Assembly (NCBI RefSeq): GCF_003063355.1 | Contig: NZ_NESH01000004.1 | Span: forward strand, 124,001 to 188,000 | Direction: 5' to 3' | Origin: Limnohabitans sp. Bal53 | GTDB lineage: Bacteria; Pseudomonadota; Gammaproteobacteria; Burkholderiales; Burkholderiaceae_C | DNA: 64,000 nt | Shown: positions 21,449 through 37,619 of the stretch, one piece after another | Position numbering within the stretch: position 1 is the first letter of the stretch | Layout of the letters: every line of letters starts with the position of its first letter | The notes under the pieces: generated by a model | What the model was told of the DNA's origin: nothing | Database searches by the model: none | Seen by the model: only the letters and a program-made list of their open reading frames with translations | Translations under genes and position numbers: made by a program

Positions 21449-21469
21449 TGACGAGCCTTGACCCCGGCA
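21449..21469. repeat. Left attachment-site repeat (copy of the ffs 3' end)
   Basis: The 21-bp sequence beginning TGACGAGCC and ending CCCCGGCA is identical to 37599-37619. The match ends at 21470 (T against C at 37620). Excision between the copies would restore ffs next to the backbone hydrolase gene at 20499-21401. Confidence 0.92.
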
Positions 21470-22069: not shown

Positions 22070-22074
22070 CTTGC

Positions 22075-22103: not shown

Positions 22104-22147
22104 ATTTGATTTTATTAAATTTACAAATGAAAATAGCTGGATGCGCC

Positions 22148-23140: not shown

Positions 23141-23346
23141 ATCCTATCCGGACTGTTGTTTTTTTGCATCTATAGGCGTTGCTGTTAATTTTTTCGTATG
23201 ATATGCAACATCAGGAACTATCTACATTTCTACCGGTGCTCCTGAAAGACAAAAGGTGACTTCAAGTATTATTTAGTATTAAATTAATTTTCTAAATTTC
23301 TGGATGACTCCGTCTGCACCTGTAGGCACATATGAAAGGAGTCACT

Positions 23347-25500
23347 ATGACTTTAGAAATCAATACTTCATCTACTTCGACCGCTGCTCTAGAGTGGTAC
23401 GCTAAAGGTTATCTCACCTGTCCGATTGTTAAAGGGCAGAAGAACCCAAGCACCAACATTACGAAATGGCTTGCTAGCTTCTCTGAACAACAGATCGAAC
23501 AACATTGGGAAGATCATCCAGAAGATGATGTTGCCTTGTATTGCTCTAATGGGTTGGTAGTGTTAGATGCAGATTCACCAGAATCTCAAAAAGCTATAGA
23601 AGACTTAGAGACGAAACACCAGCTGTACTCAAACCTGAAGGTACAGACTAAAAAAGGTTTTCATTACTACTATCGGCAAGATGCAGGCTTGAAAATTAAG
23701 CAAGCGGGACATAGCACAGAGAACAATCCTGAGCGAATTGATATCCGTTGCGGAAACTCATACATCATTGCTCCACCTAGTACCGATAAGGAGCTAATGG
23801 ACGCTGAGATTGTTCCCTTTGATCAACTTGTAGAGCTGACACAAGCCTTTGTTGATGATCTATTGATGCACAACGGCACTGCTCCTGCGCTCAAGCTGAA
23901 ATTTTTACCAACACCAGGAGCAAAAAAGAATTTTCTACCCACGTCAAAGAATGAAAAACTTCTGGCAATTCGAGCATTGATCGCACCGCTTGATCCAGAT
24001 ATCGGACATGACGAATGGCGAAATGTATTGATGGCTATTCATCATGCAACTGATGGCTCGGAAGAAGGACTCGCCATTGCGGATGAATGGTCAAGTGCAG
24101 GAGTTAAGTATGAGGGGACTTCAAAAATTGCATACAGATGGAATTCGTTCTCTTTGAATTCTGATGCTCAGATTACGATGGGTAGTATTTGGCACATGCT
24201 GAAAGAGCGTGGTCTAGATGCAAATCAGATTCTGAAAAAAGCGAATCTACACACCCATACAGGTGATGCCCTGGGCCATTCGTTTGTGAATGATAAGGGG
24301 GTTGTTCAAGCACTAACTTCTAATGGTTTTCCGCATCAACCAATCGGAAGATCAATACAGTTACCTGCTACTTTTGATAACTTTCATCACCTTGCTAAAG
24401 CATACGGCATTTCAATCCGATACAACGAAATTACGAAAAAGACTTCAATCGATATTCCTCATTTGAAGACCTCTATCGACAATGCAGACAACGTGAAAAG
24501 AAGTCACATTAGGAGCTTATGTTCTCTTAATAAGTATTCAAGTTCAGTTGTCAACGATTTTTGTGAAGCATTAGCAGACTTGAATGTTTATAACCCGGTT
24601 CGGGATTGGATCGCTTCCTCTCCTTGGGATGGTATTGATCGTCTTGAAGCTTTTTATGCAACGGTAGTAGCTGATGATGATTTTCCGGAGGATTTCAAAA
24701 AGACCCTAATGAAACGCTGGATGATCGGTGCTGTAGCAGCTGTATTCATGCCAAGTGGTTTTCATTGCAGGGGGGTACTGACGTTCTCAGGCAAACAAGG
24801 CCTTGGAAAAACATCATGGTTAAATTCGTTAGTTTCAGATGAGAAGTTGCGTAGTGAAGTAGTCTTAACAGGTCACTGCTTGGATGCATCAAACAAAGAT
24901 TCCTTGAGTACGGCTATCAGTAATTGGCTTGTGGAGTTTGGTGAAGTTGAGGCAACTTTTAGGAAACCAGTGTCACTTCTAAAATCATTCGTAACTAATG
25001 ATAAAGATATTTTTCGTCGGCCATATGCATCTGCTGATTCGACATACCCTCGACGAACTGTTTTTTTTGCATCTGTGAATGACACCAACTTTCTGAATGA
25101 CATCACTGGCAACAGCCGTTGGTGGACAATTCCTATTCAGAGCGTCAATTATCAGCATGGACTTGATATGCAACAGGTTTTTGCTCAGTTCAAAGAGGAG
25201 TGCTATGACAAAGATGTTAAGTGGTATCTAACAAATGAAGAAGAAGCTCAGCTAACAATCCTGAACAAAGATGCCGAAGTTATCAGTCCGATTCGTGAAT
25301 TGACATTAGCTTATTTGAATCGAGCTGAGGGTGAAGAAACTAATTTCTTGTCAGCAACTCAATTTCTCAGAGTTCTAAAAATTGAAAATCCAAAGATGGG
25401 ACAAATCAAAGAGGTTCGTGTGGTTCTAAAAGAGCGCCTTGGTAAAGATAGGAAGAGCAATGGTGTACAGGGATGGGAAATTCCAATGATTGATTTTTAA
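23347..25500 (+). CDS. Primase-helicase replication protein (Prim-Pol, PriCT-2 and VapE-like helicase)
   Basis: This replication protein has 717 residues. The N-terminal bifunctional primase/polymerase domain (about 10-170) shows VVLDADS with metal-binding D74 and D76, GFHYYYR, and DIRCGNSYIIAPPS. A PriCT-2-like linker (about 205-290) has DEWRNVLMAIHHATDGSEEG. The C-terminal helicase resembles VapE and D5-type proteins, with Walker A GKQGLGKTS at 482-490. Such enzymes start replication of phages, plasmids and satellites at their own origin, and iterons lie immediately downstream at 25514-25633. The start is ATG 23347 because AAAGGAG ends seven bases before it; the in-frame ATG at 23332 is overlapped by that ribosome site. 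Confidence 0.88.
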   Translation: MTLEINTSSTSTAALEWYAKGYLTCPIVKGQKNPSTNITKWLASFSEQQIEQHWEDHPEDDVALYCSNGLVVLDADSPESQKAIEDLETKHQLYSNLKVQTKKGFHYYYRQDAGLKIKQAGHSTENNPERIDIRCGNSYIIAPPSTDKELMDAEIVPFDQLVELTQAFVDDLLMHNGTAPALKLKFLPTPGAKKNFLPTSKNEKLLAIRALIAPLDPDIGHDEWRNVLMAIHHATDGSEEGLAIADEWSSAGVKYEGTSKIAYRWNSFSLNSDAQITMGSIWHMLKERGLDANQILKKANLHTHTGDALGHSFVNDKGVVQALTSNGFPHQPIGRSIQLPATFDNFHHLAKAYGISIRYNEITKKTSIDIPHLKTSIDNADNVKRSHIRSLCSLNKYSSSVVNDFCEALADLNVYNPVRDWIASSPWDGIDRLEAFYATVVADDDFPEDFKKTLMKRWMIGAVAAVFMPSGFHCRGVLTFSGKQGLGKTSWLNSLVSDEKLRSEVVLTGHCLDASNKDSLSTAISNWLVEFGEVEATFRKPVSLLKSFVTNDKDIFRRPYASADSTYPRRTVFFASVNDTNFLNDITGNSRWWTIPIQSVNYQHGLDMQQVFAQFKEECYDKDVKWYLTNEEEAQLTILNKDAEVISPIRELTLAYLNRAEGEETNFLSATQFLRVLKIENPKMGQIKEVRVVLKERLGKDRKSNGVQGWEIPMIDF

Positions 25501-25513
25501 TCTTTATTCTTCC

Positions 25514-25633
25514 AGGGTAATAGGGTTGTAGGGTCGTAGTTAATAAACTTAATTGGTGTATTGGTTATATAAAGCGCAGCATTTAATGCATGTGTACTTT
25601 ATAAAAACAGTAACCCTATGACCCTACTACCCT
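25514..25633. other. Candidate replication origin: inverted iteron arrays around an AT-rich core
   Basis: Three AGGGT words start at 25514, 25522 and 25530, exactly 8 bp apart. Three inverse ACCCT words start at 25613, 25621 and 25629, again exactly 8 bp apart. The 78 bp between them is AT-rich (for example TTAATAAACTTAATT and GGTTATATAAAG) and holds the palindrome GCATTTAATGC. The array starts 14 bp after the primase-helicase stop. Two opposed iteron sets flanking an AT-rich segment beside the initiator gene is the known layout of staphylococcal-island-type origins. Function here is inferred from this layout. Confidence 0.7.
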
Positions 25634-25676
25634 TACTCTCATGTCCAATAGAACATCCACTGCCACATGATGAAGC

Positions 25677-25740
25677 CCTCTGATATCGAAAAAATAATTC
25701 TAAAAGTAGCATTTTAGATTCGGCGCAAATTATTCAGAGG
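25677..25740. repeat. Nested inverted repeat downstream of the candidate origin
   Basis: Three inverted pairs share one axis: CCTCTGA (25677-25683) / TCAGAGG (25734-25740), AATAATT (25693-25699) / AATTATT (25728-25734), and TCTAAAA (25699-25705) / TTTTAGA (25712-25718). The loop is six bases. It could be part of the origin, a single-strand initiation site or a terminator for the replication gene; there is no T-run typical of a terminator. Confidence 0.55.
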
Positions 25741-26274
25741 AACCAAACTGAATTTGGGTGTTTTTTAACAACATTTGGCCTATTTAACAGCCAATTCTTA
25801 ACTACACAAGAACAACACACGATCAGAGCGACAACAAGCTCTTTACTTTCGTAAGCTTGCAGTCACATCTCTAGACAGTTTGAGGCTTGTATAAATAAAC
25901 AGTATCATGAGTCCTTGCCCTACTGAGTTAGACCCCTTAACCACAGCCCCGTCGGTATTTCTTAAACTAAGAAACAGAAATCCGACCATGGATATGACTA
26001 TGTATTCAGCGACATCACTCGACTTGGTGTGGTGACAGCCCCTGCGGCAGATCACACAGAAAAGAGCGAAAAACACTTAGGGAGATTGGTGTGAGATGAA
26101 ATTCAGTCGAGAAAAAGCCACTGATCCCGTATCCGGGAACAAAGGGGCGAGACTCATCGCTAGGAATTACCTTTGAGTAGTTGTCAATCGCTGCATCACT
26201 CAAGCGCAAATAATTATCAAAAACGTAGAGAATGGGGTCTTCCTTGTGTCTACACGCCAGAAGAAAGAAAGTTG
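25741..26274. other. Non-coding stretch before the cargo operon
   Basis: About 530 bp. The longest frame is a GTG-initiated 77-codon frame on the minus strand (25843-26076) with some hydrophobic residues but no ribosome site and no recognisable family. It presumably contains the promoter for the rightward cargo genes. Nothing else was recognised. Confidence 0.4.
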
Positions 26275-26898
26275 ATGCCTGAAATTGTTTACGTTCTGAC
26301 CAATGAAGCCATGGAAGGCATGGTCAAGATTGGACGCACAACCACCAGCGTAGAGCAACGCATCAGGGAGTTAGACAACACCAGCATGCCTTTACCTTTC
26401 CAGTGCTTCTATGCGGCTGAGGTTGGCAACTCCGCTTTGGTTGAAGGCAAACTGCATCGCATCTTTTCAGACAAGCGCATTCGTTCAAACCGTGAATTTT
26501 TCCGTGCAGACGCCAATCAGGTCAAAGAAGCGATTCAACTTGCGGAACTCAAAGAGGTCACGCCCAAGGTTGATGTGGTCGTGGATGCCTCCGATGTGCA
26601 AGCCTTGCAAAGAGCCGTGGCAACAGAAGAGCGCAGGACACGTCTCAGATTTTCAGAGTTGGGCATTCCTGTCGGTGCAATGTTGATCTTTACAAAAGAC
26701 TCCAACGTCACCTGCACAGTGGTAGCCGATGGTAGAGTGCAATACCAAGGGCAATCGCTTTCTCCAAGTGGAGCCGCGCTAATTGCTTTGCGAAATATGG
26801 GATACCAATGGTCTTCCGTCAGTGGTAACGATTACTGGCAGTATGAGGATGAGACTCTCGCTGCCCGTCGCCTTCGTCTTGAAGATGAACAGCATTAA
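26275..26898 (+). CDS. GIY-YIG-type nuclease-fold protein with C-terminal RAMA/DUF4357-like domain
   Basis: This protein has 207 residues. The N-terminus (about 1-90) is a short GIY-YIG domain of the T5orf172/MUG113 type: IVYVLTN, MVKIGRTTTSVEQRIREL, and the Glu-containing helix VEGKLHRIF followed by NREFF. The C-terminus (about 122-200), with ELGIPVGAMLIFTKD, then VQYQGQSLSPSGAAL and NDYWQYEDETL, resembles small domains attached to modification-dependent nucleases (RAMA or DUF4357-like). It may therefore recognise modified DNA, which is inference. ATG 26275 is preceded by AGAAAGAAAG; the frame is open upstream to 26173. It is the first gene of the cargo run, 21 bp before the methyltransferase. 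Confidence 0.72.
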   Translation: MPEIVYVLTNEAMEGMVKIGRTTTSVEQRIRELDNTSMPLPFQCFYAAEVGNSALVEGKLHRIFSDKRIRSNREFFRADANQVKEAIQLAELKEVTPKVDVVVDASDVQALQRAVATEERRTRLRFSELGIPVGAMLIFTKDSNVTCTVVADGRVQYQGQSLSPSGAALIALRNMGYQWSSVSGNDYWQYEDETLAARRLRLEDEQH

Positions 26899-26919
26899 TT
26901 TACAAGTACAACAAAAATA

Positions 26920-29685
26920 ATGAACGCTGTAGAAATTGAAGCCGCACTATCGGACCTTTCAGTTGAGCCCTTTGACGCACAGGAATTTCCATATCAATTC
27001 CTTGCTGCCTTTGGCAACAAAGAGGTTGCTCTCAAGCGGCTACGTACTGGTAACAACAACGCTTCAGACTTGCCTAATGGCGTACTGCTACGCAACAACA
27101 TCCATCTAGCAACTTGTGAGGTTGGTAAGGTTCCTGAAACATTACAAGCCCTGCGCTTAAGTCCATCTAACGCGAAAGCAAAAGCCAAATTCATTTTGGC
27201 TACCGATGGTGAAACGATTGAGGCAGAGGAATTAATTACGGGTGAGACCGTCACTTCTGCTTATACGGACTTTCCGAATCACTTCGGTATGTTCTTGCCC
27301 TTGGCTGGCATCTCCACCATCAAGGAAATCAAAGACAACCCAATTGATGTTCGTGCTACAGGACGACTCAATAAGTTGTATGTAGAGTTGCTTCGTGAGA
27401 ACCCTGAATGGGCAAAGGCAGAGCGACGTGGAGACATGAACCACTTCATGTCACGACTTATTTTTTGTTTCTTTGCAGAAGACACGGGCATCTTTAACAG
27501 CACAGGTTTGTTCTCCAAGACGGTAGAACAAATGAGTGAGCGAGATGGCTCCAACGCTCATGAAGTGTTGGAGGCAGTTTTTCGTGCAATGAACATCAAG
27601 ACTAAAGATCGGGCAAATGCACAACCGAAATTGCCCAATTGGGCAGGCGTATTTCCGTATGTGAACGGTGGACTGTTCTCAGGTAGCACCGAAGTACCAC
27701 GCTTCAGTAGGATTGCAAGAACCTACCTTAGTCACGCAGCCAATCTGAACTGGAAAGAAATTAACCCAGACATCTTCGGCAGCATGATCCAAGCAGTTGC
27801 AGATGATGAAGAGCGTGGTGCCTTGGGTATGCACTACACCAGTGTTCCCAATATTCTCAAAGTTCTAAATCCATTGTTTTTGGATGACCTGCGAACGCAA
27901 CTTGAAGTCTGTGGTGATAACAAAGCCAAATTGCTCAACTTGCGAAAGCGCATGGCCCGCATTCGCGTGTTTGATCCTGCATGTGGCTCAGGAAACTTCC
28001 TTGTTATCGCATACAAGCAGATGCGTGAAATTGAAGCAGAGATTAATCGTCGAAGAGGTGAGGAACTTCTTGGTAGTGAGATCCCTCTGACTAACTTCAG
28101 GGGTATTGAACTTCGAGACTTCCCTGCAGAAATTGCACGATTGGCTTTGATCATTGCTGAGTTCCAGTGCGATGTTCTCTACCGCGGGCAGCAAGATGCA
28201 TTGGCTGAATTTTTGCCACTTGACGCCGAAAATTGGATCGTTTGTGACAACTCTTTAGTTGTTGATTGGTCAAAAATATTTCCTAAGAATGGAACTACAG
28301 TAAAAAAAGTTCGTGAAGATTTATTTGATTTGGAAGTTAATTCCAAAGAAATAGAATTTGAAAATGATGGTGGTGAAACGTATATATGTGGGAATCCGCC
28401 ATTTGCTGGGCAAAAAAATAAAAATGACTCGCAGCGGCAGGATATGGATCTGGTGATGCCAAGATACATTTCCAAGTATGGTGAGTTGGATTACGTAACT
28501 GCTTTTTATATGAAGGCCGCTGACTATGTAAGTATTCATGGTGGTGTCGCAGCCTTAGTTTCTACCAATTCAATTGTGCAGGGACGTCACATTCCCATTC
28601 TTTGGCCCGCAATATTTAAACTTGGCTGTGAAATTGTTTTCGGTCATCGATCTTTTCTCTGGAAAAATAATGCCGCCAAAAATGCTTCTGTGTACTGTGT
28701 TGTAGTTGGCATTGGTAAAGATTTCACTGGAAAGCGCTTCATTTATGATGAAAATTCTAGGAAAGAAGTTAAATCAATTAATGCCTATTTGACTGAGGGT
28801 AGTTCAGTTACTGTTACAAAAAAAGACACTCCTATATCTCCTGATCTGCAAGTTATGCGATCAGGCAATATGCCGTTAGACAATGGATTTCTTTTGTTGT
28901 CTTGTGATGATCGTGAAATACTTCTACAGGAAGATCCAAGTGCGATCCTATATGTTAAAAAAATATTGGGGGCTAAGGAGATAAACCAAGGTCTTGAAAG
29001 ATATTGTTTATGGATTGAAGACGGGGAAGTTCAAGATGCTTCAAAAATTACCTTCATACGTAATCGTATTGATGCATGTAGAGTTTTCAGAAAAACTTCA
29101 AGTGCCCCAGGCCTTGCTGAAACTCCGCATGCCTTCCGTGATCGCCATCGTGAAACTAGTCATTCGATTGTTTTGCCTAATTTATCATCTGAGCACAGAA
29201 ACTATCGAATTCCAATCTTGACTAAAAAAGGTGTCGTAGCCTCCAACCTTGCATTAGCAATTTACGATGGTGAAATATTTCAAATTGCTGTACTTGCAAG
29301 TCGTTTGCATCATGTCTGGGTTGAAGCCGTGTGCGGAAAATTTAAACAGGATTTCAGATATTCAAATGATATGGGCTGGCATACCTTTCCTCTTCCTCAG
29401 TTAACGGAAATGCAAAAAACAGATTTAAGAAAATCTGCAGAGGAACTACTGCTTGCTCAAGAAAAATATTTCCCTAACTCTTTGAATAAAATTTATAACG
29501 ATACAAATGGCGAAAATCCAATGCCAGAAGATCTCCAATTAGTCCATCAAAGAAATGATGAACTAATCGAACGAATCTACATTGGTCGCCGATTTAAAAA
29601 TGACACTGAACGTTTAGGAAAACTTTTTGAGTTGTACGAAAAGATGACTGCTAACAGCACTGGCATCAAAAAAGGGAAAAAGTAA
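26920..29685 (+). CDS. Adenine-specific DNA methyltransferase, MmeI/YeeA-like
   Basis: This 921-residue protein should methylate adenine in DNA. The SAM-binding motif FDPACGSGNFL is at about 350-360 and the catalytic motif IV NPPF at 492-495. The long N-terminal part (about 1-330) and the C-terminal target-recognition region follow the plan of MmeI-like enzymes such as B. subtilis YeeA. I see no clear D-x9-ExK nuclease motif in the N-terminus, unlike MmeI itself, so cutting may depend on the neighbouring helicase and GIY-YIG protein. The stop overlaps the helicase start by one base (TAATG), indicating translational coupling. The second half is more AT-rich than the first. Confidence 0.85.
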   Translation: MNAVEIEAALSDLSVEPFDAQEFPYQFLAAFGNKEVALKRLRTGNNNASDLPNGVLLRNNIHLATCEVGKVPETLQALRLSPSNAKAKAKFILATDGETIEAEELITGETVTSAYTDFPNHFGMFLPLAGISTIKEIKDNPIDVRATGRLNKLYVELLRENPEWAKAERRGDMNHFMSRLIFCFFAEDTGIFNSTGLFSKTVEQMSERDGSNAHEVLEAVFRAMNIKTKDRANAQPKLPNWAGVFPYVNGGLFSGSTEVPRFSRIARTYLSHAANLNWKEINPDIFGSMIQAVADDEERGALGMHYTSVPNILKVLNPLFLDDLRTQLEVCGDNKAKLLNLRKRMARIRVFDPACGSGNFLVIAYKQMREIEAEINRRRGEELLGSEIPLTNFRGIELRDFPAEIARLALIIAEFQCDVLYRGQQDALAEFLPLDAENWIVCDNSLVVDWSKIFPKNGTTVKKVREDLFDLEVNSKEIEFENDGGETYICGNPPFAGQKNKNDSQRQDMDLVMPRYISKYGELDYVTAFYMKAADYVSIHGGVAALVSTNSIVQGRHIPILWPAIFKLGCEIVFGHRSFLWKNNAAKNASVYCVVVGIGKDFTGKRFIYDENSRKEVKSINAYLTEGSSVTVTKKDTPISPDLQVMRSGNMPLDNGFLLLSCDDREILLQEDPSAILYVKKILGAKEINQGLERYCLWIEDGEVQDASKITFIRNRIDACRVFRKTSSAPGLAETPHAFRDRHRETSHSIVLPNLSSEHRNYRIPILTKKGVVASNLALAIYDGEIFQIAVLASRLHHVWVEAVCGKFKQDFRYSNDMGWHTFPLPQLTEMQKTDLRKSAEELLLAQEKYFPNSLNKIYNDTNGENPMPEDLQLVHQRNDELIERIYIGRRFKNDTERLGKLFELYEKMTANSTGIKKGKK

Positions 29686-31799
29686 TGTCCAAAGAAATGG
29701 GTAATCCCAACAATAAATTTCCTGTGCCATCTGTATCAATCAAGACGGCACACACTGGTGCAACCAACAAAGCAAATGCTCTTGGCATGCGAACAATGCA
29801 GGAGCGTGCCTATGCCAAGCGAGGCGAGCAGTACTTGCTAATAAAGTCACCTCCTGCTTCAGGCAAGTCACGCGCACTGATGTTCATTGCATTGGACAAA
29901 CTGAACAACCAAGGTCTTAAGCAAGCACTTGTCGTAGTTCCTGAGCGATCAATCGGTAGCAGTTTTTCAGACGAGCAACTGACCAAATTCGGTTTTTACT
30001 GGGACTGGACAGTTGCACCGCAATGGAACCTTTGCAATGCACCAGGTGCAGATGAGCCAAGAGTCGCTAAATCAAAGGTAGATGCTGTTCGCAAGTTTTT
30101 GCAATCATCGGACAAGGTACTTGTCTGTACCCATGCCACTTTCCGTTTTGCAGTTGAAGAACTTGGCATTGAGGCGTTCGACGATCGCTTGATCGCGATT
30201 GATGAATTTCATCACGTCTCCAGTAATCCAGACAGCATTTTGGGATCACAACTCACTGAAATTATCAATAGAGATAAGACGCATGTAGTTGCAATGACCG
30301 GATCCTACTTCCGAGGCGATGGAGAGGCCGTTCTTTCTCCAGTTGACGAAGCCAAGTTCGAGACAGTCACCTACACCTACTATGAGCAACTCAATGGTTA
30401 CTCATGGTTGAAGTCTTTGGATATTGGCTACTTCTTCTACACAGGTCCATATGTAAATGCAATTCATAAAGTGCTTGATCCAACGCTCAAAACAATTGTT
30501 CATATTCCTAATGTCAACGCTCGTGAAGCCCTCAAAGACAAACAAGGGGAAGTTACAAAGATCATGGAGTGTCTCGGTGAGTGGAAGCATGTTGATCCTG
30601 TAACAGGCTTTCACTTGATTGCTTCTCCAGATGGCCGAACATTGAAAGTTGCAGACTTGGTTGATGACAGTGACCCAGCACAACGAACCAAGATCCTGTC
30701 TGCTCTAAAGGATCCTGCACAAAAGAACAATCGCGACCAAGTTGACATCATCATTGCCCTTGGTATGGCCAAGGAAGGGTTCGATTGGATTTGGTGTGAA
30801 CATGCGTTGACTGTTGGCTATCGAAGCAGTCTGACTGAAATTGTTCAAATCATCGGAAGAGCCACACGCGATGCAGAGGGCAAGACAAGTGCTCGCTTTA
30901 CCAACTTGATTGCTGAGCCTGCCGCAGATCAAGCCCTTGTGACGGAAGCCGTTAACGACATGCTGAAAGCAATTTCCGCAAGTCTGTTGATGGAGCAAGT
31001 CCTTGCGCCACGCTACGAATTCACTCCAAAGGATGCTGGGCCTAGGGAAGGTTTTGACTACGGCCCTGAGGGGTACGAAAAGGGTAAGACAAACGTTGGT
31101 GTCAATGAAGCCACGGGCCAATATCATGTTGAAATTAACGGGCTGACAACTCCTCAAAGCAAAGAAGCCAGTCGCATTTGCAAGGAAGACCTGAATGAAG
31201 TTGTCACGACCTTCCTGCAAGACAAGACTTCTCTTGAGCAGGGACTATTTGATAAAGAGCATGTTCTGCCACAAGAGTTGACGCAACTACGTATGGGAAA
31301 GATCGTTCGCGAACGCTACCCAGACTTGAGTGATCATGACCAAGAGGCAATTCGTCAACACGCTGTGGCCGCAATGAATGTGACTCAGCAAGCCAAGTTG
31401 GAACTTTCTAAAGCGGCATCAAATGGAGAGGATGAGCCACAAGGCAGCACGGCCTTGCTGGATGGTGTGCGTAAATTCGTCAACGTGCGAGACCTTGACA
31501 TTGAATTGATTGATCAGATCAACCCATTTGATGCGGCATATTCGGTCTTGGCCAAGTCAATGGATGAGAAGTTACTCAAGCAAGTACAGGCCACTATCGA
31601 AGCGAAAAAAGTCAGCATCTCAGAAGATGATGCTCGCGATTTGGCGAAACGAGCCTTGCAATTCAAAATGGAAAGAGGGCGCTTGCCCGACATCAACTCA
31701 GCGGATGCTTGGGAAAAACGCATGGCTGAAGGCGTGGCGGCATTGGCACGCTACCGAGCACAGGCTAAAGCGGCAGAGGATAAGAATAACAATGTCTAA
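29685..31799 (+). CDS. DExH-box DNA helicase, YeeB-like, partner of the methyltransferase
   Basis: This superfamily 2 helicase or translocase has 704 residues. Walker A is PPASGKS (56-62), the DExH box is DEFH (about 173-176), motif III reads MTGSYF, and motif VI is QIIGRATR (388-395). After the RecA domains the remaining 300 residues have no domain I can name. With the methyltransferase before it and a GIY-YIG protein after it, the order matches the uncharacterised B. subtilis yeeA-yeeB-yeeC genes, and it probably supplies ATP-driven movement to a restriction-like complex. AAAGGGA precedes the start. Its end overlaps the next gene by eight bases. Confidence 0.83.
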   Translation: MSKEMGNPNNKFPVPSVSIKTAHTGATNKANALGMRTMQERAYAKRGEQYLLIKSPPASGKSRALMFIALDKLNNQGLKQALVVVPERSIGSSFSDEQLTKFGFYWDWTVAPQWNLCNAPGADEPRVAKSKVDAVRKFLQSSDKVLVCTHATFRFAVEELGIEAFDDRLIAIDEFHHVSSNPDSILGSQLTEIINRDKTHVVAMTGSYFRGDGEAVLSPVDEAKFETVTYTYYEQLNGYSWLKSLDIGYFFYTGPYVNAIHKVLDPTLKTIVHIPNVNAREALKDKQGEVTKIMECLGEWKHVDPVTGFHLIASPDGRTLKVADLVDDSDPAQRTKILSALKDPAQKNNRDQVDIIIALGMAKEGFDWIWCEHALTVGYRSSLTEIVQIIGRATRDAEGKTSARFTNLIAEPAADQALVTEAVNDMLKAISASLLMEQVLAPRYEFTPKDAGPREGFDYGPEGYEKGKTNVGVNEATGQYHVEINGLTTPQSKEASRICKEDLNEVVTTFLQDKTSLEQGLFDKEHVLPQELTQLRMGKIVRERYPDLSDHDQEAIRQHAVAAMNVTQQAKLELSKAASNGEDEPQGSTALLDGVRKFVNVRDLDIELIDQINPFDAAYSVLAKSMDEKLLKQVQATIEAKKVSISEDDARDLAKRALQFKMERGRLPDINSADAWEKRMAEGVAALARYRAQAKAAEDKNNNV

Positions 31800-32979
31800 T
31801 CGAAATGACGATGATGATCTTCTAGACGCCCTTGGAGTCGTGGCTGAGCCTGTCAAGGTTGCGAGTCGTTCTGCCTTTGTAGAGCGAATCATTGCTGGCT
31901 TTGAAGACATACAACGGTTTTACGAAGAGCACAAAAGACAGCCTGTCAATTCTGAAGGGCTAGATATTTTTGAGCGACTGTATGCGGTGAGGCTTGAGCA
32001 ACTTCGCAAATTACCTGAGGCACGTGCTGTACTCGTTCAGTTTGATACTCATAACCTGTTGGGCTCGCCTGCGACGCATAACGTAAAAATTGATGAACTG
32101 AGCGAAGACGCACTGCTTGCTGAACTTGGTGTTTCTGCTGAGCCGTCAAGTGCTGATGACATAACAGTTTTGCGTCATGTGAGAACAAATGCAGATCGGC
32201 AAGCGGCAGAGGAAATTGCTGACCGTACTCCATGCAAGGATTTCAAGACGTTCAAACCCTTGTTTGAGCAAGCGGAACGGGAACTGAAATCGGATACACG
32301 TAAGGCTCTTCGTTTCGGTCGCGATGCAAATATTCAACTGCATGACTTCTTCATCTTGGAAGGCCAGTTTGCTTATGTTGCCGAGATGGGTGAGTCATTC
32401 AAAACTCAGACAAGTCACACCGATGCTCGCTTGCGAGTCATCTTTGGTAATGGCACTGAGAGTAACTTGCTGCTTCGCTCGCTGCAAAAAGCCTTGTGGA
32501 AAGACGAGACTGGTCGTCGTCTGACAAGTACCGACATGGGGCCTTTGTTTGCTGATCAGGCTGAGCCAGAGGACATTGAGTCCGGCACGATCTATGTGCT
32601 TCGTAGTCAGTCAACTCATCCATACGTTACAGAGCATCGTGAATTGATTCACAAAATTGGTGTCACTGGCGGTAAGGTTGAGACACGCATCTCTGGTGCT
32701 GATAAGGATGCAACTTACCTATTGGCTGGTGTTGAAGTGATCGCAACATATAAGTTGCACAACATCAACAGAGTGAAGATGGAAAACCTTTTTCATCGTA
32801 TCTTTAGTGTTGCGCAAATTGACATAAGCATTGATGACCGTTTTGGCAATCCAGTTAAGCCTAGAGAGTGGTTTCTTGTGCCTCTACAAGTGATCGATGA
32901 AGCGGTGCAACGGGTCAAAGATGGAACTATTGCTGATGTTGTCTACGATCTGAGTACTGCTGAGTTTAAGAATATTTGA
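31792..32979 (+). CDS. GIY-YIG-type (T5orf172) protein, YeeC-like
   Basis: This 395-residue protein has an N-terminal region (about 1-250) without recognised domains and a C-terminal GIY-YIG fold: GTIYVLRSQSTHPYV, LIHKIGVTGGKVETRI, ENLFHRIFS (with the metal-site Glu) and REWFLVPL. It is the third member of the methyltransferase-helicase-GIY-YIG set and the best candidate for the nuclease of that system. The start ATG 31792 lies inside the end of the helicase gene with AGAGGA upstream; an open frame extends further back to 31510 but is overlap with the helicase. The next gene starts one base after its stop. Confidence 0.78.
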   Translation: MSNRNDDDDLLDALGVVAEPVKVASRSAFVERIIAGFEDIQRFYEEHKRQPVNSEGLDIFERLYAVRLEQLRKLPEARAVLVQFDTHNLLGSPATHNVKIDELSEDALLAELGVSAEPSSADDITVLRHVRTNADRQAAEEIADRTPCKDFKTFKPLFEQAERELKSDTRKALRFGRDANIQLHDFFILEGQFAYVAEMGESFKTQTSHTDARLRVIFGNGTESNLLLRSLQKALWKDETGRRLTSTDMGPLFADQAEPEDIESGTIYVLRSQSTHPYVTEHRELIHKIGVTGGKVETRISGADKDATYLLAGVEVIATYKLHNINRVKMENLFHRIFSVAQIDISIDDRFGNPVKPREWFLVPLQVIDEAVQRVKDGTIADVVYDLSTAEFKNI

Positions 32980-32980
32980 T

Positions 32981-33286
32981 ATGAATAACTTTCCGAACAT
33001 CTACAGTGATTCTTTCATTGACTATGCTCTGAATGTGATCAAACCACGTTTACTCGAAATGAAATTGTTGATTCAGCAAGCGGAGAGTCCATCTAAAGAA
33101 ATCTTTGAGAATTCGCCTGACTTAGAGAGTTCGATTCTGAACGTGATCCTCGATTCATTGCCGACACACACTCTCTTGAGTAAACAGTTATTGGATAGTG
33201 CACAAATGCGAAATTCATTAAAGGAATTTTTACTCGGTCCTGCGCAGTTGCTAGAGGAACTTCGTGAAAAAAGTCTAAGCGTATGA
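32981..33286 (+). CDS. Hypothetical protein, 101 residues
   Basis: I do not recognise this protein. It is predicted to be mostly helical and acidic (for example IKPRLLEMKLLIQQAESPSKE and SLPTHTLLSKQLLDSAQ), has no signal peptide, membrane segment or cysteine pair, and starts one base after the GIY-YIG gene stop. Its own stop overlaps the next start (ATGA), so it is clearly translated as part of the cargo operon. A small subunit of the preceding restriction-like complex is one possibility, without direct evidence. Confidence 0.7.
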   Translation: MNNFPNIYSDSFIDYALNVIKPRLLEMKLLIQQAESPSKEIFENSPDLESSILNVILDSLPTHTLLSKQLLDSAQMRNSLKEFLLGPAQLLEELREKSLSV

Positions 33287-34152
33287 AAAAAGAAACACCC
33301 TCCATACCTCCAGTGATTGATTTCCCAACAAGTCTTTTGCCTATCGTGGATAAGGTGGTTGCTCATGCAATTAAAGGAACTGCTTTACCGAAGAACTTAA
33401 GCAAGTTGGTTGATTGGTTCGAGGACGAAGGCTGGGATGACTTGTGCTCTGCATGGGCTGAAGAATTTGTCGCGCTGAAACTATTTGAAATGGCTTGGCT
33501 AAATTTTTCAGACCGAGAATTGCTGACAAATCTTGATGAGCCCATCTCAGTCACAGACGAAGAAAGACTGACTTATGCCCGTGAATTGGTTAAAAGGGCA
33601 TTCGAGGAGTCAGATGGTTATGCTTGTCCAACAGTGCACGCAGTACAAATTTCCAATAAGCAAGGACAAGAGGCAATCCTTGGATGGCTCATGCCAATTC
33701 ATGGACAGGGCGGACCTGTTGCTGAATTTCAAGGAGTTTTCCTAGATAAGTCGCAGTTCTATCAATCTCTGCGTGATGCTGATTATGTACTCGCACCAGA
33801 AGAAAAATCACTGAAAAATGAAACGATTTTGAGGCTGTGGGCTAAGCCGTCTAAGCCAACTCGCAATGTCACTGTCTCAGTAGCGTGGGGGAATGAATTA
33901 CATGATTGCCCAATGTCCCAACGCACATGGCAAAGGGTATTGTCTGGCAATAACATAAGAAGAGTTGAATCATTTTTCTATGAAGGTAAGCGATTCAAGG
34001 CTGATTGGATGTTCAACTATTCAGGCTTTGGCTCGCTTTTAGTTACCTACGGCGATGAAGCGGTAGGTTTCGACGGCAGCCTGTCCGAAGCACAGATACT
34101 GGTAGATGACGAACCTGTCGCTTGGTTTGATGATAGTCATCATCCTGTTTAA
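33283..34152 (+). CDS. Hypothetical protein, 289 residues
   Basis: No known family recognised. The N-terminal third is helical and tryptophan-rich (DWFEDEGWDDLCSAWAEEF). The middle has a beta-rich segment (EAILGWLMPIHGQGG, then VAEFQGVFLDKSQF). The C-terminus, with YEGKRFKADWMFNYSGFGS and acidic DDEPVAWFDDSHH, looks like a small binding domain. No catalytic signature, signal peptide or membrane helix is visible. It is coupled to the previous gene by a 4-bp overlap and lies 18 bp before the next. Confidence 0.7.
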   Translation: MKKETPSIPPVIDFPTSLLPIVDKVVAHAIKGTALPKNLSKLVDWFEDEGWDDLCSAWAEEFVALKLFEMAWLNFSDRELLTNLDEPISVTDEERLTYARELVKRAFEESDGYACPTVHAVQISNKQGQEAILGWLMPIHGQGGPVAEFQGVFLDKSQFYQSLRDADYVLAPEEKSLKNETILRLWAKPSKPTRNVTVSVAWGNELHDCPMSQRTWQRVLSGNNIRRVESFFYEGKRFKADWMFNYSGFGSLLVTYGDEAVGFDGSLSEAQILVDDEPVAWFDDSHHPV

Positions 34153-34170
34153 GGGCTCGAAAGTTACACC

Positions 34171-34707
34171 ATGACAACCTACAGTTTTACACTTGAACTA
34201 TCTGAGCAAGAGTTATGGTCAGTGGAGGAGGCGCTTAAGTTCTATGTGACGCCTGAAGCCGCAAAGTTGAGGGCAGAGCGACCAGATCTAGTTCGATACG
34301 CTGGTCTTGAGCACATCTATCGAATTCTTGGGACTAAAAAACTGTATGACCAACCGCAGTTGACCAGTTCCTCATCGTTTGTTTTCTTAGGCAACAACAG
34401 CGAGTCGGACGAAAGCCACTATCAATTTGTCGACATGTTTTCTACGATTTCTCAAGCTGAAAAATTTATCTTGATTGAGGAAGTAGCCAACGCATTACTA
34501 GTGGATCCATTGCCAGAATTTGAGAGTGCTGTCTTTGCTCAGTTGTTTCATTCGCCAACCTTTCAGCAACGGGTGATTAATCAACTTTACGAAATGGTGC
34601 TTAGTGACACGCATCTAATCAAATCAATCTTAAACGTGCCCAAACATGCTTATTGGTTCCATGAGCAGGTTGCAAAGAAAATTCACTCCAAGTACTTAGG
34701 TACTTGA
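34171..34707 (+). CDS. Hypothetical protein, 178 residues
   Basis: Not recognised. It is a soluble, mostly helical protein beginning MTTYSFTLELSEQELWSVEE, with conserved-looking FYVTPEAAKLRAERPDL and a central FVDMFSTISQAEKFILIEE. There is no signal, membrane segment or motif of a known enzyme. It sits between the 289-residue unknown and the small membrane protein, all on the same strand, so it belongs to the cargo operon or to a second internal module. Confidence 0.68.
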   Translation: MTTYSFTLELSEQELWSVEEALKFYVTPEAAKLRAERPDLVRYAGLEHIYRILGTKKLYDQPQLTSSSSFVFLGNNSESDESHYQFVDMFSTISQAEKFILIEEVANALLVDPLPEFESAVFAQLFHSPTFQQRVINQLYEMVLSDTHLIKSILNVPKHAYWFHEQVAKKIHSKYLGT

Positions 34708-34746
34708 GAAGTCAAGGCACATGCTAATTACAGATCGGATACTTTG

Positions 34747-35157
34747 ATGGAAGAGATGACGAAACGAATTGCACATCTAGGGTTCATTCAAGCCATCATT
34801 ACTCGAATGGGGACGAATTCTTTTTTGCTGAAAGGTTGGAGTGTGACGCTCGTAGCGGCAATGTTTGCACTGGCTGTTAAAGATGCAGATAAATCATTCA
34901 TGCTGCTTGCTTATTTTCCCGTTTTTGTTTTTTGGTGGCTTGACGGTTTTTTTCTCTACACTGAAAAGTTGTATAGATGCTTGTATGAGAAAGTTGCTTC
35001 CGGTGAAATCTCAAGTGACAGATTCATTCTGGATACTTCAATCGTGAGAGATGATGCTCCCAACATCTTGAGTGTTCTTTTTTCAAAGACGCTGCTCACT
35101 TTTCACATTGTCGTAGTGGGTGTAGTACTAATGGCGATGTATGTTTTAGCCATGTGA
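34747..35157 (+). CDS. Small membrane protein with three predicted helices, next to TIR and macro genes
   Basis: This 136-residue protein has hydrophobic segments at about 31-45 (WSVTLVAAMFALAV), 51-71 (FMLLAYFPVFVFWWLDGFFL) and 115-136 (LLTFHIVVVGVVLMAMYVLA), separated by a charged loop of about 40 residues. The N-terminal part, NSFLLKGWSVTL, recalls small membrane proteins often found in bacterial defence loci. It lies 28 bp before a ThsB-like TIR gene. In Thoeris type II the effector has membrane helices joined to a macro domain; here these parts may be split. ATG 34747 is preferred over TTG 34744. Confidence 0.72.
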   Translation: MEEMTKRIAHLGFIQAIITRMGTNSFLLKGWSVTLVAAMFALAVKDADKSFMLLAYFPVFVFWWLDGFFLYTEKLYRCLYEKVASGEISSDRFILDTSIVRDDAPNILSVLFSKTLLTFHIVVVGVVLMAMYVLAM

Positions 35158-35185
35158 TGCAGGTTCAATTAAAACTTTATGGTCT

Positions 35186-35674
35186 ATGACAAAAAGGCAA
35201 GTGTTCTACAGTTTTCATTACGACAAAGACGTGATGCGAGTTCAACAAGTTCGTAATATTGGGGCTCTTGATGACAACAAACCAGTTGCCCCAAACAATT
35301 GGGAGCAAGTTAAACGTGCTGGTGATGCTTCCATACATAAATGGATTGATGACAACATGAGATGGCGTTCGTGTGTTGTTGTCCTTGTTGGAGAGCAAAC
35401 TGCATCTCGTCGATGGGTAAAGTATGAAATCAAGAAAGCGTGGGAGGATGGAAAAGGGCTCCTTGCAGTGCGTATTCATAATTTGAAATGTCCACGTAAT
35501 GGATTCGGTACTACTGGTCCAAATCCTTTTGATGGTTTGCATTTCAAGCAAGGCGATCGACTCATAGTCCCAAGAATCCACTCGCCAAATGCTCTTAATC
35601 CTCATGCTGATATTGCAGCAAATTTGGAAAACTGGATTGAGGAAGCAATTCACCAAAGGCGATACCAAACGTGA
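35186..35674 (+). CDS. TIR-like signalling protein of the Thoeris ThsB / MTH538 family
   Basis: This 162-residue protein starts with QVFYSFHYDKDVMRVQQVRN, the hallmark of the ThsB/DUF1863 TIR-like family. It continues with WEQVKRAGDASIHKWID, VVVLVGEQTASRRWVKYEI (putative catalytic Glu at 81) and LLAVRIHNLKC. ThsB proteins sense infection and turn NAD+ into an ADP-ribose-derived signal that activates a partner effector. Its stop overlaps the GTG start of the macro gene (GTGA), so signal maker and probable signal reader are co-translated. Confidence 0.85.
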   Translation: MTKRQVFYSFHYDKDVMRVQQVRNIGALDDNKPVAPNNWEQVKRAGDASIHKWIDDNMRWRSCVVVLVGEQTASRRWVKYEIKKAWEDGKGLLAVRIHNLKCPRNGFGTTGPNPFDGLHFKQGDRLIVPRIHSPNALNPHADIAANLENWIEEAIHQRRYQT

Positions 35675-36177
35675 TCTACGAAGTTGTTCTTGCAGATATT
35701 GCCAAGCAGGCAGACATTGAGGCGGTGGTGAACTCAGCCAATGCAAACCTGCGCTTTGGCTCGGGAGTTGCAGGGGCAATTCATAGTGCTGCTGGACCGG
35801 AACTTGAAGACTATTGCGAACCCTACGCACCGTTGCCATTTGGTGCAGCGTTGGTGACTCCAGGCTTCAACTTGCCAAACAAGTTTGTCATCCATGTTAG
35901 GGCAGCGCACTACCTAAACGATGATGAACCAGAGGCTGTCCTGCAAAAGTGTGTTCAATCAGTGGTTGCGGCAGCGAACCAAAACGCCATTACCAGTATG
36001 GCAATTCCGGCAATTGGTACAGGCGTTTTCAAGTTTCCCAAGGAACTTTCGGCGTCAATCATGGCGACTAGTTTTCGCCAGTGTTTTGAGCAGCCCACTT
36101 CGTTGCAGAAGGTCAGAATTTGTGTTGCTGATGCAGACACAAAAGCGCTGTTTGAGCGGGCATTTTTTACAGCCTGA
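35671..36177 (+). CDS. Macro-domain protein, probable ADP-ribose-type signal binder
   Basis: This 168-residue protein is almost entirely one macro domain: LADIAKQADIEAVVNSANA with adenine-contact Asp9 and Asn24, the loop GSGVAGAIHSAAG (30-42), TPGFNLPNKFVIHV, and AIGTGVFKFP near residue 113. Macro domains bind ADP-ribose and its derivatives. No membrane helix is present, unlike the fused membrane-macro effectors of Thoeris type II. The start is GTG 35671, overlapping the TIR stop. It could sense the TIR product and act on the small membrane protein upstream, or hydrolyse the signal to damp it. Convergent with the integrase gene. Confidence 0.85.
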   Translation: MIYEVVLADIAKQADIEAVVNSANANLRFGSGVAGAIHSAAGPELEDYCEPYAPLPFGAALVTPGFNLPNKFVIHVRAAHYLNDDEPEAVLQKCVQSVVAAANQNAITSMAIPAIGTGVFKFPKELSASIMATSFRQCFEQPTSLQKVRICVADADTKALFERAFFTA

Positions 36178-36272
36178 GGCCCTCAAATTTTCCGCAAATC
36201 AGGTGTACTACAATTGAAAAATTCGCGCTGTAACCTGCAAAAATGCTGGCGGTCTATATTTTCTGGGCGTCT

Positions 36273-37487
36273 TCAGCTTCCAGGGTCAACTTTGGCAACG
36301 ACAGGTAAATTGAGGGTTTCTAGCGTCTCAATAGCTTGTTTCAGCTGTTCGATTTGTGGGTGGGTGTAGACCCGAGCACCGATACTGCCCTGAGATTCAT
36401 GGCCTAGCAGTCTGTCGATGATCGGTTCGGGAACATTCGACCTAGTTAGTGATGTACGGACGGTATGTCTAAAGCTGTGAAAAACCAATGTATCCGGTAC
36501 GTCCAGTGATCGTCGGAAGCTTCCAAACCACTGGCTGAAAAAGCTCCCAGGTTTGCCATCTCGAAGTGGTAGGTCAGGCCAAAGGCTAATGCTCTTCTGA
36601 GAACTCGCATACTCAAGAAATCCTAAGCGAATCAGCTCAGAATGAATTGGAATTCTTCGAACACTGGCAGTCGTTTTTACATGTTGCCCCTCACCTTGAT
36701 CGGTGATCTTGATCAAAGGTACATGTCCAGAAGTGTCGATGTCTTGCACAAGTAATTGGCAGAGTTCTGAACACCGTGCTCCTGTGTACAGCGCCAGCAG
36801 TGGTATCCAGTAAGCGGCTAATCCACCAGCTTTCTTGTCTTTCGGTAATTGTCCGTTTTGCCAGATTTCATGACCCAGCAATTTTTGAAGCCAATCGGTT
36901 GACCAGACCTGTCTAGAGGCCGTTGTTTTGCTTTTTATGTCCAACCCTACCCACGGACTTTTGGGTATCAGCTCCAAGTCCTGAGCAGCGTATTTCAACA
37001 AGCTTTTGACCCAGTTCAAGCGATCTCTAGCTGTCTTTGATGTGGTGGGCAATGTTTGTAGGAATGAGCGAAATTCATTCCCCAAGCTTCGAGTCATTTG
37101 GTTCAATGGTGGGTTGTGTGTGTGCTGCTCAAAGAGCTTAACTGCACGATTGCATGCAGCAATTGAATCAGCAGTTCTACGGCTAGCTTGAACCCAGAGG
37201 TCGTACACATCTCGAAGTAGCACAGGTTTTGCAGTGTCGGGCGTTGCAGCCTTACAGCGATTGATGTCTGTCAATATCTCTATTCTTTTCGGATGGAATG
37301 ATTCGCCCCAAAGAATCTCAGCACGTTTGATCGTCCCCAAGCGTATGGCTTCACGGTGGCTACAACGGCCAAGAGAAGTTACGACTTTTCCGCTTTTGTA
37401 GCGGTCTAAAAGAGGGTGGTGAAGAGGAAGAACGACTCGGAGGTAGTAAGCGCCCCCACGATCGAAAAGACCGGTTAACTGTGCCAT
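36273..37487 (-). CDS. int: Site-specific tyrosine recombinase (integrase) of the element
   Basis: This phage-type integrase has 404 residues. The N-terminus MAQLTGLFDRGGAYYLRVVLP is typical of the DUF6538-type arm-binding domain found in many beta- and gammaproteobacterial integrases. The catalytic domain shows the first Arg in YTGARCSELCQL, HSFRHTVRTSL (H-x2-R), GHESQGSIGARVY and a terminal Tyr in VYTHPQ. ATG 37487 with AGGATGG upstream is preferred; the frame is open to ATG 37559, only 40 bp from the attachment repeat. It lies directly downstream of ffs on the same strand, so read-through from the SRP RNA promoter could contribute to its expression. Confidence 0.92.
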   Translation of the reverse strand: MAQLTGLFDRGGAYYLRVVLPLHHPLLDRYKSGKVVTSLGRCSHREAIRLGTIKRAEILWGESFHPKRIEILTDINRCKAATPDTAKPVLLRDVYDLWVQASRRTADSIAACNRAVKLFEQHTHNPPLNQMTRSLGNEFRSFLQTLPTTSKTARDRLNWVKSLLKYAAQDLELIPKSPWVGLDIKSKTTASRQVWSTDWLQKLLGHEIWQNGQLPKDKKAGGLAAYWIPLLALYTGARCSELCQLLVQDIDTSGHVPLIKITDQGEGQHVKTTASVRRIPIHSELIRLGFLEYASSQKSISLWPDLPLRDGKPGSFFSQWFGSFRRSLDVPDTLVFHSFRHTVRTSLTRSNVPEPIIDRLLGHESQGSIGARVYTHPQIEQLKQAIETLETLNLPVVAKVDPGS

Positions 37488-37509
37488 GTGACCATCCTGT
37501 TGGATCCAA

Positions 37510-37532
37510 GGTGACACAGCTGAGTGATACAA
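37510..37532. repeat. Right copy of the shared end motif, possible integrase arm site
   Basis: AGGTGACACA (37510-37519), seven bases, then GATACA (37527-37532). The same two words with the same 7-bp gap occur at 21561-21583. The gaps read GCTGAGT here and CTCAGCT at the left end. Confidence 0.4.
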
Positions 37533-37598
37533 ATGAACAGAATTTAGGTCCGAATTCACGGTAACCTAGTGATCTAATTCACTTTTAAAAGAATAAGG

Positions 37599-37619
37599 TG
37601 ACGAGCCTTGACCCCGGCA
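37599..37619. repeat. Right attachment-site repeat, within the ffs 3' end
   Basis: Identical over 21 bp to 21449-21469. It forms the 3' strand of the closing stem of the SRP RNA, so integration leaves ffs intact on this side. Confidence 0.92.

What the first reader, a model, noticed from the sequence alone, without database searches (positions are those of the whole stretch)
26275..32979. Methyltransferase-helicase-GIY-YIG defence set with a second GIY-YIG protein in front
Seen: an MmeI/YeeA-like adenine methyltransferase with no visible PD-ExK nuclease, a DExH helicase and a GIY-YIG protein are translationally coupled, and another small GIY-YIG protein with a RAMA/DUF4357-like end sits 21 bp upstream. 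Known: the same three-gene order exists as B. subtilis yeeABC, whose role is not settled to my knowledge. Inference: a restriction-like system split over three proteins, in contrast to single-chain enzymes that join nuclease, helicase and methyltransferase.
Basis: partly seen in the sequence, partly recalled or inferred. Interest (0 to 1): 0.75.

Follow-up and report, generated by a model that had tools for sequence, protein, structure and literature searches.

The report
Three-part restriction operon with swappable targeting
A mobile island in this bacterium carries a known but poorly understood three-gene DNA-marking and DNA-cutting set, and comparing relatives shows that these sets keep their machinery but swap the part that reads the DNA target, which fits a working anti-invader system better than the relic proposed from Bacillus subtilis.

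Summary
At 26275-32979 lie, head to tail, a 207-aa GIY-YIG protein, an MmeI/DnmA-like adenine methyltransferase without PD-ExK nuclease, an SF2 helicase and a T5orf172/GIY-YIG protein. The last three are the known DnmA-YeeB-YeeC cluster. In the 80 best YeeB relatives, MT lies upstream and YeeC downstream in 78 each; contig ends cut the rest. The small GIY-YIG protein is in none of those 80 loci, so it is no core subunit. It is PADLOC's PDC-S57, predicted GIY-YIG plus RAMA; some homologues adjoin other R-M genes.

New here: methyltransferase codons about 500-810 (second half of the catalytic domain plus recognition domain) form a swapped cassette. Its identity does not track the rest of the protein (Spearman -0.02 over 2485 pairs; YeeB 0.68). 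In six of six near-identical pairs examined, DNA similarity stops at codon 491-509 and resumes at 796-831. This fits active restriction better than an orphan or relic role. The operon rides a 16.2-kb island in ffs. Best reading: a Type I-like restriction system split over three proteins; cleavage is untested.

The parts
26275..26898 (+). S57: 207-aa GIY-YIG (T5orf172) + predicted RAMA protein, PADLOC PDC-S57; neighbour, not core
   Evidence: Pfam, PADLOC, AlphaFold2 model (pLDDT 85, pTM 0.48), fold matches; absent from the 80 relatives
26920..29685 (+). YeeA/DnmA-like MmeI-family adenine methyltransferase (921 aa), N-terminal nuclease domain without PD-ExK
   Evidence: Pfam; alignments; MmeI is the only PDB sequence hit at E 0.001, E 9.2e-128
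28417..29349 (+). Exchangeable recognition cassette inside the methyltransferase (codons about 500-810; breakpoints in relatives 491-509 to 796-831)
   Evidence: Sliding identity, DNA breakpoints, uncoupled identity. The bounds are inferred for the window from relatives
29685..31799 (+). YeeB-like SF2 helicase/translocase (704 aa)
   Evidence: Pfam DEAD/ResIII; alignment (PPASGKS, DEFHH and QIIGRATRD stretches invariant in 9 rows)
31792..32979 (+). YeeC-like protein with C-terminal T5orf172/GIY-YIG domain (395 aa)
   Evidence: Pfam; Y268, K288, G290, R299, E331 in 77 of 77 rows, H335 in 76 of 77; model (pTM 0.39), Slx1 match Z 5.3
21449..21469 (.). Left 21-bp direct repeat (att-like), same as the 3' end of ffs
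   Evidence: exact repeat
37599..37619 (.). Right 21-bp direct repeat inside the 3' end of ffs (SRP RNA, 37597-37693, minus strand)
36273..37559 (-). Tyrosine-type integrase next to ffs, probable mover of the 16.2-kb island that carries the operon
   Evidence: Pfam Phage_integrase E 5.6e-15; related integrase next to ffs in a same-genus genome, locus L192

Best explanation
This is a DnmA-YeeB-YeeC system, working as a Type I-like restriction-modification enzyme split over three proteins. The methyltransferase reads an asymmetric site with its target-recognition domain and marks an adenine (shown for B. subtilis DnmA in print, inferred here). On an unmarked site it would not cut, because its nuclease motif is gone (shown by sequence); instead it would recruit the YeeB motor (inferred), perhaps through its conserved former nuclease domain and C-terminal helical domain. 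YeeB would translocate DNA with ATP (inferred from SF2 motifs) and YeeC would cut with its GIY-YIG domain (inferred from conserved residues). Recognition is changed in evolution by swapping one cassette between codon ~500 and ~810 while motor and nuclease stay (shown for sampled relatives). The operon sits on an ffs-integrated island. S57 is a separate candidate defence protein that happens to sit in front.
For: Fixed order: among the 80 best relatives MT is upstream in 78 and YeeC downstream in 78, the other loci being cut by contig ends. In 274 class genomes YeeB is in 10, YeeC in 11, both in the same 9; the 3 others are partial or contig-edge hits. PD-ExK lost but domain kept; SAM motif in 71 of 71 rows, NPP[YF] in 69 of 71. 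GIY-YIG residues kept. Cassette exchange: in 18 pairs with YeeB at least 92% identical, median block identity is 79-100% over residues 1-460 but close to the all-pairs background over 501-800; DNA breakpoints agree in 6 of 6 pairs examined; one cassette 84% identical sits on backbones about 70% identical (L106/L054). An accessory slot between MT and YeeB holds extra DNA in 44 of 78 loci, with SLFN_AlbA_2, YhcG, RhuM, GmrSD_N, Fic, PIN and other families, and no gene was seen between YeeB and YeeC. Widespread on plasmids: 223 records for YeeC at E 1e-15, 178 for YeeB at E 1e-100.
Against: No cleavage, methylation or phage data exist for this locus. In B. subtilis, dnmA deletion left plasmid transformation unchanged and single-gene deletions left infection by three phages unchanged; the authors call the cluster a relic, and its site is not depleted in phage genomes (PMC7261158, PMC9973331, passages). 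T5orf172 has K where many GIY-YIG enzymes have the second Y (recalled). YeeB has no PDB sequence relative at E 0.001. The YeeC model is weak (pTM 0.39) and its GIY-YIG fold match modest (Z 5.3). Cassette variety could also serve lineage marking without cutting. G233 (520 contigs) has two MT hits at 37-40% identity and a partial YeeC but no YeeB at E 1e-50, and was not examined further. The 80 loci are the best-scoring relatives of one motor, not a random sample.
Confidence: 0.72

Rival explanations
1. Orphan methyltransferase from a dead restriction system: it only marks DNA and tunes gene expression, as proposed for B. subtilis DnmA; YeeB and YeeC are passengers.
For: B. subtilis deletion data and lack of site avoidance (PMC7261158 and PMC9973331, passages).
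Against: YeeB and YeeC are kept with invariant motif residues in relatives; the recognition cassette is swapped repeatedly, which a regulatory marker would not favour; in the class sample the DnmA-type MTs at 54% identity or more come with YeeB, except a degraded relic in G185. G233 is an unexamined possible exception.
Confidence: 0.13
2. A BREX- or DISARM-like block: methylation marks self, and YeeB/YeeC stop phage replication without endonucleolytic cutting at or near sites.
For: MT resembles DrmMI and PglX weakly; helicase plus MT logic is shared; no cutting has been shown.
Against: No PglZ, DUF1998 or PLD family among the 10 island proteins scanned; NCBIfam BREX models score 28.2 bits or less against cut-offs of 400-900; a conserved GIY-YIG domain is present.
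Confidence: 0.1
3. Four-protein system: S57 is a working subunit or a second nuclease of the same enzyme.
For: 21-bp spacing, same strand; S57 homologues also sit beside other adenine R-M genes: between hsdS and hsdR (L141), after a type III res (L149), beside type I hsdS/hsdR (L162), and about 320 bp from a BsuBI/PstI-type pair on a plasmid.
Against: S57 in 0 of 80 YeeB relatives, 71 of which hold more than 700 bp before the MT; 12 of 17 S57 loci have no match to five type I/III R-M queries within 300 bp (type II genes were not searched there); in G128 MT and S57 lie on different contigs.
Confidence: 0.08

Closest known systems
DnmA-YeeB-YeeC (yeeABC) of Bacillus subtilis and Vibrio crassostreae
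   Same: Same three families in the same order; methyltransferase without PD-ExK; low-GC, probably horizontally acquired setting (PMC9973331, passages)
   Different: No long gaps in YeeB/YeeC here against relatives, whereas PMC9973331 says B. subtilis copies lack stretches of the C-terminal domains; extra S57 in front; carried on an ffs island; cassette swapping shown here for relatives
MmeI, Type IIL restriction enzymes
   Same: Domain layout nuclease-spacer-MTase-TRD-helical bundle (PMC4833311, passages); all five Pfam MmeI domains and sequence match to MmeI
   Different: PD-ExK catalytic residues absent; comes with partner helicase and nuclease genes
Type I R-M (HsdR-HsdM-HsdS)
   Same: Marking and cutting in separate subunits with an SF2 motor; exchangeable recognition part (recalled for HsdS); accessory genes between subunit genes (recalled; S57 itself in L141)
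   Different: Recognition and methylation in one chain; the putative nuclease is a separate GIY-YIG protein
PADLOC PDC-S57 / GIY-YIG-RAMA fusions
   Same: S57 matches PDC-S57 at 6.8e-72; GIY-YIG-RAMA fusions are mentioned as possible 6mA-dependent enzymes in PMC11037411 (passage)
   Different: Untested; here next to a DnmA-type system

Membership tests
DnmA-YeeB-YeeC cluster | MmeI-like MTase without PD-ExK | tested here: met
DnmA-YeeB-YeeC cluster | SF2 helicase then T5orf172/GIY-YIG gene directly downstream, same strand | tested here: met
   same order in relatives
DnmA-YeeB-YeeC cluster | m6A methylation of an asymmetric site | not testable with these tools
   SAM and NPPF motifs present; motif needs methylome data
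MmeI / Type IIL enzyme | PD-ExK nuclease in the same chain | tested here: not met
   D deleted, E and K replaced
Type I R-M | separate HsdS specificity subunit (Methylase_S) | tested here: not met
   no Methylase_S among the 10 island proteins scanned; TRD lies inside the MTase
Type I R-M | ATP-driven translocation coupled to cleavage | not testable with these tools
   motifs only
Functional restriction system | site-dependent cleavage of unmethylated DNA or phage restriction | not testable with these tools
   indirect: cassette exchange
BREX | BREX MTase (PglX) above model cut-off | tested here: not met
   best 28.2 bits against 900
DISARM | DUF1998 (DrmB) and PLD (DrmC) partners | tested here: not met
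   none among the 10 proteins at 26275-36177; other island ORFs not all scanned
PDC-S57 (upstream protein) | match to the PADLOC model over its length | tested here: met
   E 6.8e-72, positions 5-208 of 212
RAMA domain (upstream protein) | RAMA fold | tested here: met
   predicted model aligns to CcrM C-terminus Z 11.3 and MPND Z 9.2; no Pfam sequence hit; Foldseek E no better than 3.6e-3

The most novel reading that the evidence does not exclude
DnmA-YeeB-YeeC is a distinct, active class of modular restriction enzyme: a de-nucleased MmeI scaffold whose former nuclease domain became a docking platform for a separate SF2 motor and GIY-YIG nuclease, with specificity changed by exchange of one ~300-codon cassette that starts just after catalytic motif IV. 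In addition, GIY-YIG-RAMA proteins such as S57 are portable companions of adenine-methylating R-M systems of several types, reading adenine methylation state and cutting DNA that has the wrong mark.
Probability: 0.25. Interest if true: 0.7.

Novelty: new member of a known kind. Interest (0 to 1): 0.5.

Why it matters
The role of yeeABC has been left open, with the best-studied copy called a relic. Cassette exchange in a fixed operon is an evolutionary sign of selection for new target sites, as in Type I specificity subunits (recalled); it says where to look for function (copies with full-length YeeB and YeeC) and gives natural pairs that differ almost only in specificity. Pairs such as L119/L110 allow a direct test: near-identical motor and nuclease, different predicted target. 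If cutting is shown, it adds a restriction architecture with a detachable GIY-YIG cutter and a defined swap point for changing specificity.

Tried and rejected
Rejected: S57 as a core subunit (0 of 80). Rejected: BREX or DISARM membership. Rejected: the idea that low TRD identity is simply fast drift; pairs with mostly 81-94% identical flanking DNA show no blastn match at E 1e-8 over most of the cassette (one 116-bp piece at 74% in L052/L051, and L117/L116 resumes with a 70% piece at codon 812).

Led nowhere: no solved relative of YeeB or, by sequence, of YeeC or S57 (only chance-level hits). The YeeC N-terminal half gave no convincing fold; its middle part (residues ~172-246) resembles SH3/KOW-like domains weakly (Z 5.0 or less). 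Promoter-like sites were fewer than in shuffles (6 against 11.8) and terminator-like sites about equal (8 against 7.7). DNA-level search of the operon in plasmids found two partial matches. YeeB in phage records: two partial matches. No paper on YeeABC cassette swapping turned up in nine searches; of these I saw the listings, and passages of eight papers (PMC9973331, PMC7261158, PMC11037411, PMC4833311, PMC13230959, PMC9997735, PMC8432527, PMC6712171), the last four of which I do not rely on. The library holds open-licence papers only, so this is weak evidence of novelty. Morgan et al. 2009 and Piel et al. were not read; what I say of them is second hand.

Results against my reading: cassette exchange is not clean in every pair (L101-L091 keeps 0.95 at residues 521-540 and 0.75-0.80 at 541-600; L099-L086, L101-L091 and L115-L091 also differ in the C-terminal domain). 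Pairs are not independent, so the Spearman p-value is not a real probability. One search prints 12 of 18 pairs; the median covers all 18. Codon numbers count from the first start codon of each ORF, which in some loci lies upstream of the conserved start, so breakpoints may be a dozen codons off. Gene gaps use such starts too. Row selection: MT alignment 70 of 78 loci (at least 820 aa) plus the window, YeeC 76 of 78 (at least 330 aa) plus the window. Neighbour counts for S57 use 17 loci (L160 dropped because an overlapping ORF masked its S57) plus one of three plasmid records. Slot families: 20 Pfam queries, one protein sent twice, so 19 of 52 plus-strand slot ORFs; larger families rest on one or two scanned members of a phmmer cluster.
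Full report
What is there. The window holds a low-GC stretch (39-50% G+C in 2-kb blocks at 22-38 kb against 57-64% elsewhere) bounded by 21-bp direct repeats at 21449 and 37599, the latter in the 3' end of ffs. Inside are an integrase next to ffs (Phage_integrase E 5.6e-15), a small HTH protein, a Prim-Pol/PriCT_2/VapE-like replication protein and cargo genes, among them the four genes of the finding.

What the proteins are. MT carries all five Pfam MmeI domains, and MmeI is its only PDB sequence relative at E 0.001. The MmeI nuclease residues are D70, E80 and K82 (PMC4833311, passage). In an alignment with three MmeI-type proteins, one a paralogue from the same genome (L044), those keep D...E-x-K, while six DnmA-type rows lack the D by a deletion and have other residues at E-x-K; in 71 rows no E or K stands in those columns. 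The SAM motif DPACGSGNF is invariant in 71 of 71, and NPP[YF] is kept in 69 (two rows have NPQ). YeeB has DEAD/ResIII motifs. YeeC has a C-terminal T5orf172 domain in which Y268, K288, G290, R299 and E331 are invariant in 77 of 77 rows and H335 in 76.

Is it one system? MT lies upstream in 78 and YeeC downstream in 78, same strand; the missing ones are cut by contig ends. In 274 genomes of the class, YeeB occurs in 10, YeeC in 11 and both in the same 9; the three others (G257, G079, G233) are partial or contig-edge hits. G233 also has two MT hits at 37-40% identity on separate contigs and was not examined. Seven loci with MmeI-type relatives at about 34% identity have neither partner in the DNA held. 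YeeB and YeeC overlap or lie within 15 bases in 77 of 78 loci (L069 has a broken YeeC), whereas 44 of 78 have more than 200 bp between MT and YeeB. That slot holds 52 plus-strand ORFs of 80 aa or more in 40 loci: clusters represented by SLFN_AlbA_2 (9 ORFs), DUF1016/YhcG (6), a 137-143-aa unknown family (6), a weak sub-threshold PLD-like hit (5), RhuM (3), GmrSD_N (2), and single Fic, PIN, PDDEXK_4, DUF559 and YafQ proteins (19 of the 52 scanned). First-round loci add two RhuM and one YhcG protein in the same place. In 40 loci with such ORFs, 20 are within -30 to +20 bases of both neighbours.

Cassette exchange. Across 2485 pairs of 71 proteins (70 loci and the window), identity over codons 500-800 of MT does not track identity over codons 1-480 (Spearman -0.02), while YeeB does (0.68). 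From YeeB at least 60% up to at least 90% identical, median TRD identity stays at 43-44%. In the 18 pairs with YeeB at least 92% identical, median identity per 20-residue block is 79-100% over residues 1-460 (15 of 23 blocks at 95% or more), falls to the all-pairs background at about 500, right after motif IV (492-495), and rises above it again at about 820. In DNA, six of six pairs examined lose similarity at codon 491-509 and regain it at 796-831; L119/L110 are 93.4% identical up to codon 504 and 94.5% from 796. The reverse also occurs: 10 pairs share a cassette at more than 70%, 6 of them with YeeB below 80%; L106 and L054 share one at 84% with MT backbone 70% and YeeB 69%. I take this as recombinational replacement of the recognition part, as known for Type I specificity subunits (recalled). 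It says that new specificities are favoured, which restriction explains and a fixed regulatory mark does not. It does not prove cutting. The window's own cassette has no close match: best 43% among the relatives and below 60% in all 262 plasmid records hit.

What is known. Nye et al. 2020 (PMC7261158, passages) show that YeeA/DnmA makes GACGmAG in B. subtilis and that dnmA deletion does not change transformation; they cite an earlier study (their reference 49, which I take to be Morgan et al. 2009) for a Type I-like proposal. PMC9973331 (passages) shows the conserved gene order and defence neighbourhood, no effect of single deletions on three phages, no avoidance of the site in phage genomes, lack of stretches in B. 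subtilis YeeB and YeeC, and reports from another study that V. crassostreae dnmA and yeeB deletions raise sensitivity to some phages. So the cluster, its order and the split-restriction idea are in print; the cassette exchange and the restricted position of the accessory slot I did not find in print in my nine searches (listed under Tried and rejected).

The small GIY-YIG protein. S57 matches PADLOC PDC-S57. A predicted structure (16 sequences, pLDDT 85, pTM 0.48) aligns its N-terminus with Slx1 and At-HIGLE nucleases (Z 7.5-7.7, middling, but in line with the Pfam hit) and its C-terminus with the CcrM C-terminal domain (Z 11.3) and MPND (Z 9.2). [quoted passage not shown] S57 is found in 12 of 274 class genomes (E 1e-10) and 8 of 398 phylum genomes (E 1e-15), both counts including the window's own, and in 0 of 80 YeeB loci. 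Among 17 S57 loci it lies within 300 bp of an R-M gene in the window, L141 (between hsdS and hsdR), L149 (after a type III res), L162 (beside hsdS/hsdR) and, weakly, L161; on one plasmid it lies about 320 bp from a BsuBI/PstI-type pair. The other 12 loci had no match to five type I/III queries that close. It is a neighbour with a taste for R-M loci, not a subunit.

Mechanism. Shown by sequence: loss of the MT nuclease motif, retention of MTase, motor and GIY-YIG residues, fixed order, cassette exchange in relatives, island borders. Inferred: complex formation, translocation, cutting by YeeC, docking on the N- and C-terminal domains of MT. The high conservation of the MT C-terminal domain (median 86% in 611 pairs with MT residues 330-460 above 85% identical, TRD 42% in the same pairs) next to the free-floating cassette fits a docking role but is not proof.

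Verdict. The finding is real; its core is a known kind. The system most likely restricts unmethylated DNA (0.72). Interest 0.5, mainly because swap pairs make the open question of yeeABC function directly testable.

Noticed in passing
window 21449-37619: 16.2-kb element in the 3' end of ffs with integrase, small HTH protein and Prim-Pol/VapE replication protein; no structural genes among the ORFs I looked at: phage-satellite-like or other integrative element carrying defence cargo.
   Followed up: partly
window 34744-36177: Small protein matching PDC-M50A, ThsB-like TIR protein (also PDC-M50B) and a macro-domain protein in a row: looks like a split form of a TIR plus macro/membrane effector module, reminiscent of type II Thoeris (recalled).
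   Followed up: no
window 32981-34707: Three ORFs (101, 289 and 178 aa) without any Pfam family above cut-off directly behind YeeC, the first two overlapping by 4 bases; none found in the 80 relatives.
   Followed up: no
L192 and G678:C2:35476-40736: ffs may be an integration hot spot in the genus: a related integrase next to ffs in L192 (1 of 11 same-genus loci other than the window's that were compared), and a second exact 23-bp copy of the ffs end about 5.2 kb from the gene in G678.
   Followed up: no
L044 5845-8640 (own genome): A second MmeI-like protein in the same genome keeps PD-ExK and has no YeeB or YeeC in the 18 kb held.
   Followed up: partly
L091 4486-4911, L096 4982-5404, L110 4643-5065, L119 1039-1461 (PIN); L098 1094-1399 (HTH_3): PIN-domain (VapC-like) proteins, or an HTH protein that reads like a HigA-type regulator, directly before the methyltransferase gene in relatives with a 4-base overlap; similar ones by reading in L055, L090, L107, L125, and an annotated VapC on plasmid L198.
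   Followed up: partly
L092, L099, L102, L107, L110, L116 (between MT and YeeB): A recurrent 137-143-aa protein family in the accessory slot; the members scanned had no Pfam (L092, L099) or PADLOC (L092) match.
   Followed up: no
window YeeC residues about 172-246: Predicted SH3/KOW-like middle domain, weakly like EF-P domain I, UvrD C-terminus and CarD (Z 5.0 or less).
   Followed up: no
L035, L038, L042, L109: Methyltransferase reading frame split in two pieces: possible pseudogenes or sequencing errors.
   Followed up: no
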